Assembly: GCA_013393545.1 (NCBI GenBank)
Contig: JABXHG010000030.1
Coordinates: 1-6,645, forward strand
Length of the DNA stretch: 6,645 nt
Direction of reading: 5' to 3'
Source of the DNA: Alteromonadaceae bacterium
GTDB lineage: Bacteria; Pseudomonadota; Gammaproteobacteria; Pseudomonadales; Oleiphilaceae
The translations under genes were made by a program, and so were the position numbers. The notes under the pieces are model-generated. The model worked only from the letters and a program-made list of their open reading frames with translations. It had not been told where the DNA came from and did not search any database. This document shows positions 1 through 6,645 of the stretch, piece by piece. How positions within the stretch are numbered: the stretch's first letter is position 1; each line of letters opens with the position of its first letter.

Positions 1-116
1 ATGTTCGGCGATTTGCCACCAAGTTCCACAGTCGAGGGAATGATATTCTCGGCAGCACACTTGAGGATGTGGGAGCCAACAGGCGTGGAGCCGGTAAAGG
101 CAATCTTGGCAATGCG
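1..116 (-). pseudogene. aldehyde dehydrogenase fragment (NAD-dependent, AldB/ExaC-like), runs off left edge
   Basis: Read on the minus strand, this stretch encodes [18 protein letters not shown], then [18 protein letters not shown] up to the window edge. FTGSTxVG is the nucleotide-binding loop of aldehyde dehydrogenases. ELGGKSPN carries the conserved catalytic-base Glu that precedes the active-site Cys, which would lie further left, outside the window. The wording is closest to the AldB/ExaC (acetaldehyde dehydrogenase) type as I remember it. Homology stops around positions 110-125: upstream of RIAKI the expected N-terminal ~200 residues are absent, and the DNA instead reads on the plus strand as the end of another gene. 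No start codon or promoter is visible, so the piece is most likely a 5'-truncated relic. Family assignment is confident; subtype and full extent are not. Confidence 0.78.
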
Positions 117-117
117 C

Positions 118-192
118 GTGCTGGTGGAAGTGCCGTTGATGCTGGCACTGGTGAAGATTGCCAACAAGACGCGGGACAAGTTCCCGGAGTAA
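118..192 (+). pseudogene. C-terminal remnant of an ACR3-type arsenite efflux transporter
   Basis: The plus strand encodes [18 protein letters not shown] and a few charged residues before a TAA stop at 190-192. The LVEVPxML segment followed by a basic tail is typical of the last membrane helix and C-terminus of ACR3 (ArsB-type) arsenite/H+ antiporters, which are about 350 residues long. Only about 25 codons survive. The reading frame stays open to position 1, but upstream of 112 it is merely the antisense of the aldehyde dehydrogenase piece. The gene was therefore cut and joined to foreign DNA near 112-125. A hairpin begins 10 bases after the stop, as expected for a real gene end. The fragment is short, so the identification is tentative. 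Confidence 0.55.
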
Positions 193-4888: not shown

Positions 4889-4901
4889 TGGTCGCAAAGC
4901 G
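4889..4901. repeat. 13-bp direct repeat, left copy flanking higBA
   Basis: TGGTCGCAAAGCG occurs here and again, identical and in the same orientation, at 5609-5621. The pair brackets the whole higB-higA module. A repeat of this length 720 bases apart is unlikely by chance in so short a window. Confidence 0.65.
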
Positions 4902-4931
4902 GCGGAAAATCGATAGCTGTGAAGCCGTTGG

Positions 4932-5246
4932 TTATGCCCTATGTCTGATTTCAGATACCGCAGTCCACGGACGAATAGTCTTTAACTGATCCTCCAGGGC
5001 ATCTTCGGCAATCTCAGTGTCGTAGGCTGCCTGAGCGCGCAACCAGTAGCCGTTAGACAAACCAAAGAAACGACAGAGTCGCAGATCCGTGTCTGCGGTA
5101 ATCGAACGTTTTCCCGCAATGATCTGGCCTATTCTCTGAGCAGGCACCCCAATTTCTTTGGCCAGGCGGTATTGAGAAATGCCCATCGGTTCCAGAAAAT
5201 CTTCTTTGAGCAACTCGCCTGGCGTGACAGCATCAATGTTGCGCAT
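4932..5246 (-). CDS. higA: HigA antitoxin (HTH, VapI/HigA family)
   Basis: The antitoxin of a type II toxin-antitoxin pair: it binds and neutralises HigB and represses the operon. Its 104 residues fit the family. TPGELLKEDFLEPMGIS leads into a helix-turn-helix at ~24-47 (SQYRLAKEIGVPAQRIGQII then AGKR). The HigA-typical block of SITADTDLRLCRFFGLS, YWLRAQAAYD follows. The ATG at 5246 is chosen because TTAGGAGG lies six bases before it. The open frame extends upstream to 5408, but that part is only the antisense frame of the toxin gene. The ribosome site overlaps the TAG stop of higB, and the 10-base gap implies translational coupling. The TAA stop sits inside GCATAAC, which resembles an integron R'' core site. 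Short extension after YDTEIAEDALE is normal for the family. Confidence 0.95.
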   Translation of the reverse strand: MRNIDAVTPGELLKEDFLEPMGISQYRLAKEIGVPAQRIGQIIAGKRSITADTDLRLCRFFGLSNGYWLRAQAAYDTEIAEDALEDQLKTIRPWTAVSEIRHRA

Positions 5247-5256
5247 GAGCCACCTC
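5247..5256 (-). promoter_or_regulatory. higA ribosome binding site overlapping the higB stop
   Basis: On the minus strand TAGGAGGTGGCTC precedes the higA ATG. The higB TAG supplies the first bases of the Shine-Dalgarno word AGGAGG. Ribosomes finishing the toxin can start the antitoxin directly, and a strong antitoxin site beside a weak toxin site favours excess HigA. Confidence 0.85.
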
Positions 5257-5535
5257 CTAATGGTAATCAACAATTTCGACATCTTCCGCGCCAGCCCTGG
5301 TCCAGCGGAAGCAAACCCGGAACTGCTTGTTGATTCGAATGCTGTGCTGGCCTTGGCGGTCACCAAGCAATGGCTCCAACATATTTCCGGGCGGTACTTT
5401 AAGATCATCCAACTGGCTTGCAGCTTGGAGTTGCCGAATCTTCCTTAACGCAACTCGCTCAAAATTGACGAAGCGACTGACGCGGCGTCCGCTTGCCAAC
5501 TTCTCGGTGTCCTTACACTTGAACGATATGATCAT
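5257..5535 (-). CDS. higB: HigB toxin (RelE-superfamily, plasmid-killer type)
   Basis: The toxin of the pair, a ribosome-dependent mRNA interferase of the RelE fold. Its 92 residues are standard for the HigB family. Recognisable blocks are FKCKDTEKLASGRR at the N-terminus, the ALRKIRQLQAASQLDDL helix (29-45) and PPGNMLEPLLGDRQGQHSIR at 48-67. The strand INKQFRVCFRW (68-78) and the C-terminal EIVDYH follow. The last three blocks are the family signature, with R73 and the terminal H92 region where the active site lies. The ATG at 5535 is chosen because the family begins with MI.SF; the open frame continues upstream to 5697 only through repeat-like hairpins. No ribosome site is visible, and a promoter is predicted almost directly before the ATG. 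The toxin-first order is typical of higBA. It looks complete and functional. Confidence 0.95.
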   Translation of the reverse strand: MIISFKCKDTEKLASGRRVSRFVNFERVALRKIRQLQAASQLDDLKVPPGNMLEPLLGDRQGQHSIRINKQFRVCFRWTRAGAEDVEIVDYH

Positions 5536-5541
5536 GTCCCA

Positions 5542-5578
5542 ATAGTGACGTGATGCGACATTAACGTCAAGCGTTATT
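5542..5578 (-). promoter_or_regulatory. higBA promoter and probable HigA operator
   Basis: On the minus strand TTGACG (complement of 5565-5570) and CACTAT (complement of 5542-5547) are 17 bases apart, a plausible -35/-10 pair. Over the -35 lies an imperfect inverted repeat, ATTAACG (5560-5566), TCAAG, CGTTATT (5572-5578), with 6 of 7 positions matching. It is well placed for HigA autorepression. Confidence 0.6.
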
Positions 5579-5596
5579 AACCGGAAGATGAATCTC

Positions 5597-5628
5597 GAAC
5601 ATTCGCTTTGGTCGCAAAGCGAACGTTC
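5597..5628. repeat. hairpin containing the right 13-bp repeat copy
   Basis: GAACATTCGCTTT (5597-5609) pairs with AAAGCGAACGTTC (5616-5628) over 12 of 13 positions around the loop GGTCGC. The right copy of the direct repeat TGGTCGCAAAGCG (5609-5621) spans the loop and one arm. It lies upstream of the higBA promoter and has no T-run, so it is not a simple terminator. Confidence 0.7.
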
Positions 5629-5636
5629 AGATGGTG

Positions 5637-5721
5637 CGATAACGCGAAGCTTTGCGGCAGTTTTGGAACCGCGCAGCGGTGGAAAACTGTCCGACAACAG
5701 CGGCTGCTTAAAATGCTATCG
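5637..5721. repeat. long bulged hairpin, attC-like in architecture
   Basis: The stretch folds on itself. The outer stem is CGATA/TATCG, followed by AAGC/GCTT, then a long inner arm (5652-5697). That arm pairs TTG/CAA, CGG/CCG, CAGTTTT/AAAACTG and ACCGC/GCGGT around a GCA loop, with two single-base bulges on the same side (T5690 and A5694) and unpaired spacers between outer and inner stems. Same-side bulges and a spacer are features of integron attC sites. However, the core sites do not fit GTTRRRY/RYYYAAC. The outer stem contains the stop codon of the toxin relic. It could also be a dispersed repeat of this genome. Confidence 0.5.
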
Positions 5722-5907
5722 TTCACCTTCCAGCTCGTGCCATACCCTTAGAATGATGATGGCACTCACATGTACAGAATAGCGAACAATGTACTTGCCA
5801 AAGACCATGTCGCGGATGGAATCAGGTACTGGCGCCAGTTCAACCGGCGGACGGTCAGGCAACTGACACCTCACGTGCAGCTGCCAGCGGGCTGGCGTAG
5901 CAGCTCC
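5716..5907 (-). pseudogene. RelE/ParE-family toxin, C-terminal remnant
   Basis: The minus strand encodes LPDRPPVELAPVPDSIRDMV, then FGKYIVRYSV and IIILRVWHELEGER before a TAG stop at 5718-5716. The order IRDxVFGKYIVRY then ILRVWH is the C-terminal half of RelE/ParE toxins, mRNA interferases or gyrase poisons of about 90-100 residues. Only about 48 residues are recognisable, and the frame has no usable start codon. Just upstream, in another minus frame, SPLAAAREVSVA resembles the helical N-terminal part of the family, so an internal deletion with frameshift is likely. No antitoxin gene is seen; DNA beyond about 5910 turns into the metal exporter relic. The toxin should be inactive because the N-terminal half and start are lost. 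Family call fairly sure, lesion details less so. Confidence 0.68.
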
Positions 5908-5908
5908 C

Positions 5909-5926
5909 TATCCCCCCCCGGGGATA
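5909..5926. repeat. C8 tract inside an inverted repeat
   Basis: TATCCCC, four further C, then GGGGATA form an 18-bp inverted repeat with a run of eight C. It sits exactly where the toxin relic ends and before the exporter relic. It may be a slippage-prone tract or a scar of a join. Confidence 0.5.
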
Positions 5927-5987
5927 TGAATTCGTTCATAGCGACAAAACCGTCTATCCGTTTTTTCTCAGGAAATTTTCTGTGCAT

Positions 5988-6356
5988 CACGAACGATTGA
6001 ATCACTGGCAATGATGGTCTGGGAAATCCTCGCAGGAATCGTATATGGCTCAATGGCATGGCTAGCCGATGGCGTACCAAAGTCTTTCTCGACGAGCAAC
6101 TTCAGGACTTGGAGGAAGCTATAAAACAAACTGTCGAAGACGACGAAGCAAAAGTCTCTGACCTGCATGTGTGGACGATTGGTTCAAACATACACGCTGC
6201 ATAGTATCTTTGGTTTCACACCGTATTGAGTCACCCACAGCGTACAGGAATCGTATTCAAGCCCAGCCTAAATCTCTGGTTCATGTAACCGTTGAGTTAA
6301 ACCAGTGCAGTACCAATCATGAATCAATGCCAGAGGAACTGCCGAATCAATGCTAA
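5988..6356 (+). pseudogene. cation diffusion facilitator (DmeF/CzcD-like metal exporter), deleted and frameshifted relic
   Basis: Three pieces of a CDF metal/H+ antiporter are in order but in different frames. Frame 2 (to about 6073) gives AMMVWEILAGIVYGSMAWLA followed by DG, the first membrane helix with the LADG metal-site motif. Frame 1 (6079-6201) gives KVFLDEQLQDLEEAIKQTVE, then DDEAKVSDLHVWTIGSNIHA, the cytoplasmic metal-binding domain. Frame 3 (6201-6356) gives IVSLVSHRIESPTAYRNRIQ and LVHVTVELNQC to TAA. Helices 2-6, about 180 residues, are missing at the 6073-6079 join. The second shift is explained by one lost base after 6200. HHER in another frame at 5985-5996 may be the N-terminus with a third lesion. 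CDF proteins are about 300-320 residues and export Co, Zn, Cd, Fe or Mn. Family call solid; metal unknown; no function expected. Confidence 0.82.
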
Positions 6357-6403
6357 TCAGAGGCAAGTTTGTATTGGCTATAGAAGCTTGCTAAATTACC
6401 GTT

Positions 6404-6505
6404 TCGTTGGGGAGTAGCCTGCTTCCGATGCTCGGAAGAGGTTGTGTCAACAAACTTTGCCCCATGCCATGGTGCGAACACCCCTCCGGTGGCGCGACCA
6501 TCTAA
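6404..6505 (+). promoter_or_regulatory. yybP-ykoY manganese riboswitch
   Basis: The conserved blocks of this Mn2+-sensing RNA are present in order: TTGGGGAGTAGCC at 6407-6419, a perfect hairpin CTTCCG/CGGAAG (6422-6438), GTCAACA at 6446-6452, a variable hairpin ATGGT...ACCAT (6469-6501) with CACC/GGTG inside, and the closing GCGCGACC at 6492-6499. In known members GGGGAGUAGC and the CAACAUAC/GC..GACC core form the two docked loops that bind Mn2+. The outer stem (TGG/CCA) is short here. These riboswitches sit in front of Mn exporters (MntP, GDT1/UPF0016 or P-type and CDF exporters) and turn them on when Mn2+ is high. The regulated gene would start beyond the right edge. Confidence 0.87.
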
Positions 6506-6513
6506 ATATCCAT

Positions 6514-6535
6514 GCCCCAAGCCGGGCGTTTTGTT
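6514..6535 (+). terminator. terminator-like hairpin in the riboswitch expression platform
   Basis: GCCC (6514-6517) and GGGC (6524-6527) flank a CAAGCC loop and are followed by GTTTTGTT. The stem is short, but its position directly after the aptamer fits a transcription-attenuating expression platform released by Mn2+ binding. Confidence 0.4.
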
Positions 6536-6645
6536 ATATCTGGTACTCAAATTCCCCGTCCCGACGCCGTCTAATTAGCCCCTTTGCCCTTTGCTTTCCT
6601 TCCCTTGCGCTTGTCCCCCGTTCCTTTGCTTCTGCCATTGGTAAC
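6536..6645 (+). other. pyrimidine-rich leader downstream of the riboswitch, no gene start
   Basis: No ATG or GTG occurs on the plus strand here, so the controlled gene begins past the window. 6571-6640 is about 80% pyrimidine (27 C and 10 G in 70 bases), with little self-pairing. C-rich, G-poor RNA like this can bind Rho. On the minus strand two short lysine/arginine-rich frames run in from the right edge, but neither resembles a family. Confidence 0.5.

What the first reader, a model, noticed from the sequence alone, without database searches (positions are those of the whole stretch)
6404..6535. Manganese riboswitch at the right edge with an off-window target
The blocks GGGGAGTAGCC, GTCAACA and GCGCGACC occur in the order and spacing of yybP-ykoY RNAs, and a hairpin plus T-rich stretch follows. 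The spot carries only a meaningless antisense open frame, so it is easily mis-annotated. It predicts that the next gene to the right encodes a Mn2+ exporter.
Basis: partly seen in the sequence, partly recalled or inferred. Interest (0 to 1): 0.72.

Follow-up and report, generated by a model that had tools for sequence, protein, structure and literature searches.

The report
Manganese riboswitch on misread contig end
The right edge of this Marinobacter sequence holds an ordinary manganese-sensing RNA switch in front of a manganese pump gene, but its last 205 bases look like sequencing errors, which make the switch look damaged and the gene look absent.

Summary
The riboswitch is real and ordinary. 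Window 6397-6550 matches Rfam RF00080 at only 24.3 bits (cut-off 45). The same locus on Marinobacter plasmid pMAD49a scores 56.4 bits and precedes an intact mntP. The window equals that plasmid from 5609 to 6440 apart from one base in a C run, then carries 48 substitutions in its last 205 bases. These hit columns invariant among relatives as often as chance predicts (28 of 48; expected 28.1), while 24 relatives have 0-7 each. An unreliable contig end explains this best; no reads were available.

The predicted Mn2+ exporter is right, but the target is not off-window: mntP would start at 6574, inside the damaged tail. The "hairpin plus T-rich stretch" is absent from the plasmid copy. The likely mechanism is a translational ON switch: in 23 of 23 leaders the Shine-Dalgarno bases are calculated to be easier to open when aptamer helix P1.1 is enforced, although they are not cleanly free.

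Side finding: riboswitch-mntP units lie on plasmids, two on pMAD49a.

The parts
6397..6535 (+). Mn2+ riboswitch aptamer region (yybP-ykoY); correct letters up to 6440, suspect letters after
   Evidence: RF00080 hit 6397-6550 at 24.3 bits in the window; the corresponding L146:6796-6934 of pMAD49a scores 56.4 bits
6409..6417 (+). L1 block GGGGAGTAG, unaffected by the tail
   Evidence: invariant in 23 of 23 leaders; identical to pMAD49a
6446..6456 (+). L3 block, relatives read (A/G)TCAACATACTT or a near variant; the adenosine matching A48 of the X. oryzae aptamer is kept, the next base differs from all but one of 26 relatives that carry T
   Evidence: A48 role from passages of PMC6754395; the numbering match is my inference
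6486..6499 (+). segment that in relatives pairs either inside the aptamer or with the Shine-Dalgarno region (CGGTTGGC), followed by GCGAGACC of the P1.1 side; both damaged in the window
6512..6529 (+). false terminator-like hairpin, absent from the plasmid copy
   Evidence: found, not found
6562..6565 (+). place of the Shine-Dalgarno GGAG of mntP, unreadable in the window
   Evidence: alignment to pMAD49a
6574..6645 (+). first 24 codons of mntP, damaged; the start codon reads ATT
   Evidence: alignment and translation against L146:6973-7530; Pfam PF02659 for the plasmid protein
6441..6645 (.). unreliable tail: 48 substitutions against pMAD49a
5982..6335 (+). remnant of dmeF (CDF family Co/Ni exporter), broken by a large internal deletion, frame changes and a stop; identical in the plasmid, so real decay
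   Evidence: tblastn of the intact pMAD49a DmeF; identity with pMAD49a

Best explanation
The locus is a Mn2+-sensing yybP-ykoY riboswitch in the leader of mntP, a Mn2+ efflux pump gene, in a Marinobacter stretch also present on plasmid pMAD49a. It most likely works as a translational ON switch. Without Mn2+, bases at the 3' side of the aptamer (CGGTTGGC and neighbours) pair with the Shine-Dalgarno region of mntP and the following bases form a long hairpin. With Mn2+, loops L1 and L3 dock, helix P1.1 is held, those bases stay in the aptamer, and ribosomes can start on mntP. The damaged look of the window copy comes from unreliable base calls in its last 205 positions. Shown: homology, gene order, the break in identity at 6441 and its lack of selective pattern, alternative folds by calculation. 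Inferred: Mn2+ binding, the switch itself, the sequencing cause, and that 6645 is a contig end.
For: 56.4 bits for RF00080 at the same locus of pMAD49a before an annotated and Pfam-confirmed mntP. Window equal to the plasmid over 5609-6440 but for one base, then 48 substitutions in 205; 28 of 48 in invariant columns with 28.1 expected, against 0-7 for each of 24 relatives. A second genome (L125) agrees with the plasmid (leader 100% over 167 bases, coding sequence 99.8%). 27 purine-to-pyrimidine against 9 reverse changes, 36 transversions against 12 transitions. Leaders: consensus fold with the Shine-Dalgarno bases paired, 99.3% of cells standard pairs, opening cost lower with P1.1 enforced in 23 of 23. 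E. coli mntP works by translation (PMC11647493, passages).
Against: No reads or quality values were seen, and no tool says that the window ends where its contig ends. The onset of differences at 6441 is abrupt (6 in the first 34 bases) rather than slowly rising. The alignment method matters: MAFFT gives 48 substitutions and no gaps, blastn 41 mismatches and 5 gap positions over 5603-6644. For the mechanism: the anti-Shine-Dalgarno helix 6 shows no change on both sides (7 of 8 pairs never vary); P1.1 costs a mean 15.7 kcal/mol in the calculation; in the P1.1-enforced pMAD49a fold three of four Shine-Dalgarno bases are still paired.
Confidence: 0.9

Rival explanations
1. The window holds a genuinely decayed riboswitch and mntP pseudogene that mutated freely.
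For: The changes ignore conserved columns, as in a dead sequence; mntP has no ATG and the riboswitch scores low; the neighbouring dmeF is really decayed.
Against: 48 changes in 205 bases beside 832 bases with one difference to the same plasmid; ordinary decay has no reason to begin sharply at 6441 or to favour purine-to-pyrimidine changes on one strand. No gap in the MAFFT alignment.
Confidence: 0.05
2. The tail comes from a different, diverged mntP locus joined by recombination or by assembly at about 6440.
For: A sharp break point; the window's left end also looks joined from two places.
Against: No relative is closer to the tail than pMAD49a and L125 (0.77 and 0.76; the others 0.42-0.71). 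32 of 48 window bases are found in none of 26 relatives (my count), 38 of 48 after dropping L125 and L145. A working diverged copy would spare invariant columns.
Confidence: 0.03
3. The riboswitch is real but acts by an intrinsic transcription terminator, as the reader's hairpin with T-rich tail suggests.
For: A terminator-like site at 6512-6529 in the window; terminator control is described for Gram-positive members (PMC11647493, passage).
Against: The site is absent from the plasmid copy; the consensus hairpin of 23 leaders is not followed by a T run. Rho-dependent control is not tested.
Confidence: 0.07
4. The blocks are a chance resemblance.
For: The window alone scores below the curated cut-off.
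Against: 56.4 bits at the same locus of pMAD49a; leaders 91-95% identical to it stand directly before mntP in 7 of 7 further non-identical loci that I compared.
Confidence: 0.01

Closest known systems
Mn2+ riboswitch upstream of E. coli mntP (yybP-ykoY, RF00080)
   Same: Same Rfam family, same target gene family, and a calculated fold in which the ribosome site is hidden without the aptamer helix, as reported for E. coli (PMC11647493, passages).
   Different: Carried on a plasmid next to a dmeF remnant; Mn2+ response untested; Rho dependence, known in E. coli, not examined.
X. oryzae yybP-ykoY aptamer (crystal structure)
   Same: L1 block and the L3 adenosine that contacts Mn2+ are present (numbering matched by me).
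   Different: The X. oryzae RNA is discussed as a transcription antiterminator (PMC6754395, passages); here translation control is proposed.
Second copy on pMAD49a: dmeF, RF00080, mntP (L172:5402-7153)
   Same: Leader 94.7% identical, MntP 84.9% identical; RF00080 56.2 bits.
   Different: dmeF is intact there and a remnant in the stretch shared with the window.

Membership tests
RF00080 Mn2+ riboswitch, window letters as given | Covariance score at or above the curated 45 bits | tested here: not met
   24.3 bits; the shortfall is attributed to the suspect tail
RF00080 Mn2+ riboswitch, same locus as read in pMAD49a | Covariance score at or above the curated 45 bits | tested here: met
   56.4 bits, E 8.2e-14
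RF00080 Mn2+ riboswitch | Conserved L1 block GGGGAGTAGC | tested here: met
   window 6409-6418; invariant in 23 of 23 leaders
RF00080 Mn2+ riboswitch | L3 with the invariable adenosine that contacts Mn2+ | tested here: inconclusive
   adenosine kept in the window, neighbouring base suspect; full L3 in pMAD49a; numbering matched by me to PMC6754395
RF00080 Mn2+ riboswitch | Four-way junction with docked legs | not testable with these tools
   secondary-structure helices only; no three-dimensional RNA model
RF00080 Mn2+ riboswitch | Selective Mn2+ binding and switching | not testable with these tools
   needs in-line probing or reporter assays
RF00080 Mn2+ riboswitch | Metal-exporter gene directly downstream | tested here: met
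   mntP in pMAD49a and, damaged, at window 6574
MntP (PF02659) | Pfam match of the downstream protein | tested here: met
   179.9 bits for the pMAD49a protein; the window holds only 24 damaged codons, which were not scanned

The most novel reading that the evidence does not exclude
A portable Mn2+-sensing module: a Mn2+ riboswitch with mntP, beside an intact or broken dmeF, moves on conjugative plasmids and islands between marine gammaproteobacterial orders. The RNA leader stays more alike (91-95%) than the gene it controls (72-81% of nucleotides) in 7 of 7 non-identical pairs compared, and one plasmid carries two copies.
Probability: 0.5. Interest if true: 0.4.

Novelty: new member of a known kind. 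Interest (0 to 1): 0.2.

Why it matters
It is a clean example of a sub-threshold, seemingly decaying riboswitch that is most simply explained by an unreliable contig end. A scan that trusted the letters would report a degenerate RNA, a false terminator and a missing target. The side finding, riboswitch-controlled Mn2+ efflux units on plasmids, would add an RNA-controlled metal pump to the cargo of marine plasmids, if transfer is confirmed.

Tried and rejected
Own genome: none is held for the window, so relatives were used. Viral contigs: one exact-pattern match among 2.9 million contigs, with no RF00080 match in that record and unrelated open frames around it; taken as chance. Solved structures: no relative of the plasmid MntP by sequence at E up to 0.01. 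Papers: none held with both Marinobacter and yybP-ykoY; three with Marinobacter and mntP (listing only), whose titles do not concern this locus; none for a five-term search on riboswitch, plasmid-borne, mobile elements, metal resistance and manganese; none with MntP, Asp16 and manganese efflux, so nothing is claimed about that residue. These searches cover the held open-licence library only. The first alignment had four loci on the wrong strand (L083, L084, L103, L115); only its correctly oriented rows were used. The idea that the repeat TGGTCGCAAAGCG marks an integron attC site was considered and left untested. A search for further copies of the M. vinifirmus uppP leader found only itself in 124 genomes.

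Full report
WHAT WAS CLAIMED.

THE OBSERVATION. The blocks are present at 6409-6419, 6446-6452 and 6492-6499. The Rfam scan of the whole window at E up to 1 gave one match: RF00080 at 6397-6550, plus strand, 24.3 bits, E 0.0011, curated cut-off 45 bits. On the window letters alone this is a sub-threshold hit.

WHERE IT COMES FROM. The window's BCCT transporter is up to 91% identical to proteins in Marinobacter genomes. A megablast of the window against 72,556 plasmid records found two. One is M. shengliensis plasmid pMAD49a, which matches 5603-6644 at 95.6%; the other shares 36 bases. On pMAD49a the annotated gene is a manganese efflux pump of the MntP family at L146:6973-7530, Pfam PF02659 at 179.9 bits. 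The RNA before it scores 56.4 bits, E 8.2e-14. No whole genome is held for the window itself.

THE DAMAGED TAIL. The window equals pMAD49a from 5609 to 6440 (832 bases) except for one base in a run of C, and from 6441 to the end differences are dense. In a MAFFT alignment there are 48 substitutions and no gaps in 205 positions: 6, 6, 7, 10, 8 and 10 per 34 bases and one at the last base. blastn over 5603-6644 counts 41 mismatches and 5 gap positions. Of the 48, 36 are transversions and 12 transitions; 27 go from purine to pyrimidine and 9 the other way (p 0.00015). A second genome (G073, L125) agrees with the plasmid: leader 100% over 167 bases, mntP 99.8%. In a table of 26 relatives, 32 of the 48 window bases occur in none (my count). 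For one search I dropped L125 (a near-copy of the plasmid) and L145 (a short outlier) and compared the window with the other 25 sequences, the plasmid included. Of 205 columns, 120 are invariant. The window changes 28 of 48 times in invariant columns, 28.1 expected by chance, and 38 of its 48 bases are private. Each of the 24 other relatives, with 18-41 differences to the plasmid, has 0-7 in columns invariant among the rest. So the window's differences show no trace of selection, start sharply beside a nearly identical stretch, and run to the end of the sequence. Half of them (24 of 48) are A-C or G-T exchanges, one third expected (p 0.02); that such pairs are typical of Illumina miscalls is recalled, not looked up. 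I conclude that the tail is an unreliable contig end. That the window ends where its contig ends is inferred, and the abrupt rather than gradual onset is not what a simple read-end decline would give.

CONSEQUENCES FOR THE FINDING. The terminator-like site at 6512-6529 (shuffles give 0.4 on average) is absent from the same stretch of the plasmid. The third block reads GCGAGACC in 23 of 23 mntP-type leaders. The window leader folds only slightly better than its shuffles (z -1.2; 25 of 200 at least as good); the plasmid leader does clearly (z -3.2; 1 of 200). The gene is not off-window: mntP would start at 6574, where the window reads ATT and translates as ISPFALCFPSLALVPRSFASAIGN, against MSPFALLLLAFAMSTDAFAAAIGK in the plasmid.

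THE GENUS. RF00080 matches at E up to 0.001 occur in 104 of 124 Marinobacter genomes, over the cut-off in 37 of 124 (with stricter filters that lose weak matches; 3 of 14 control genomes ring). Of 33 loci fetched have an MntP relative, one a UppP relative and nine neither. In 9 of those 9 a 189-residue frame follows, with the motif EIGDKT twice in the stretch shown. That fits the GDT1 (UPF0016) signature given in the abstract of PMC7380456 (search listing); no Pfam test was made. These loci are the best-scoring ones, not a random sample. Window 6340-6645 itself finds matches in 23 of 124 genomes.

MECHANISM. In the consensus fold of 23 leaders the segment CGGTTGGC pairs with the bases up to and including the first G of the Shine-Dalgarno GGAG (helix 6), the other three pair with columns 13-15 before L1 (helix 1), and the aptamer's 3' strand lies in a long hairpin with later bases. 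In the fold of pMAD49a alone the last three pair instead with CTC just before CGGTTGGC. Of all cells, 99.3% are standard pairs; five pairs have a change on both sides, 0.8 in shuffles. One of these is in helix 1, none in helix 6, where 7 of 8 pairs never vary and so say nothing. Enforcing three P1.1 pairs lowers the calculated cost of opening the Shine-Dalgarno bases in 23 of 23 leaders, from a mean of 6.6 to 3.0 kcal/mol, but itself costs 15.7 kcal/mol, which Mn2+ docking or folding during transcription would have to outweigh. In the P1.1-enforced pMAD49a fold three of the four bases are still paired, so a free ON state is not shown. The model agrees with E. coli mntP, whose leader hides the ribosome site without Mn2+ and frees it with Mn2+ (PMC11647493, passages), and with the stabilisation of P1.1 by Mn2+ (PMC6754395, passages). 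Mn2+ binding by this RNA is inferred from its family.

MOBILE SETTING. pMAD49a is typed as conjugative. It has a second RF00080 match of 56.2 bits, between an intact dmeF and another mntP. The window's stretch has only a dmeF remnant at 5982-6335, identical in the plasmid, so that decay is real. The stretch L146:6008-8446 recurs in G073 at 99.7%; among the plasmids only pMAD49a holds most of it (1 of 5 matching records). Similar leaders are found on five plasmid records in all. Those of a Methylophaga plasmid and a 1.2 Mb Pseudoalteromonas replicon are 94.4% and 92.7% identical to pMAD49a, their mntP sequences 77.4% and 71.9%, with RF00080 at 52.0 and 53.2 bits. Transfer between orders is a reasonable reading, but no tree was made, and strong constraint on the RNA would give the same difference.

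VERDICT. An ordinary Mn2+ riboswitch before mntP, correctly spotted, on an unreliable contig end that hides its target and creates a false terminator. New member of a known kind; low interest.

Noticed in passing
L087:1501-1675 (M. vinifirmus, G002): A weak RF00080 match (25.6 bits, below the cut-off) stands before a uppP/BacA gene, an unusual target; no similar leader in the other 123 of 124 genomes searched.
   Followed up: partly
window 1-127 joined to 113-700: The first 127 bases match an aldehyde-dehydrogenase-like stretch (name from reading the frame, not searched) that in the listed Marinobacter genomes lies apart from the place that matches 113-700; the left end may be an assembly join as well, or a rearrangement.
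   Followed up: partly
window 4890-5612: A HigB-like toxin and HTH antitoxin pair in a stretch of 723 bases found at 97% in G065 and G006, with the 13-base direct repeat TGGTCGCAAAGCG at 4889 and 5609; the same repeat begins the mntP stretch on pMAD49a. A mobile unit of unknown kind.
   Followed up: partly
window 5597-5628: An inverted repeat (14-base arms, 93% complementary, 4 bases apart) at the junction of the toxin-antitoxin stretch and the plasmid-like stretch.
   Followed up: no
L172:5402-7153 (pMAD49a 63401-65152): A second, intact dmeF, RF00080 and mntP set on the same plasmid, close to a tyrosine recombinase gene and conjugation genes.
   Followed up: partly
L170:5994-7734 (Methylophaga pinxianii plasmid pWTT2411): RF00080 at 52.0 bits before mntP, with dmeF and a metal-sensitive repressor gene on the other strand beyond it.
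   Followed up: partly
L085 and L089 (M. bryozoorum, G006): The mntP frame behind its riboswitch matches for only 52 residues and then stops: a possible real mntP pseudogene, or a fault on a short contig.
   Followed up: no
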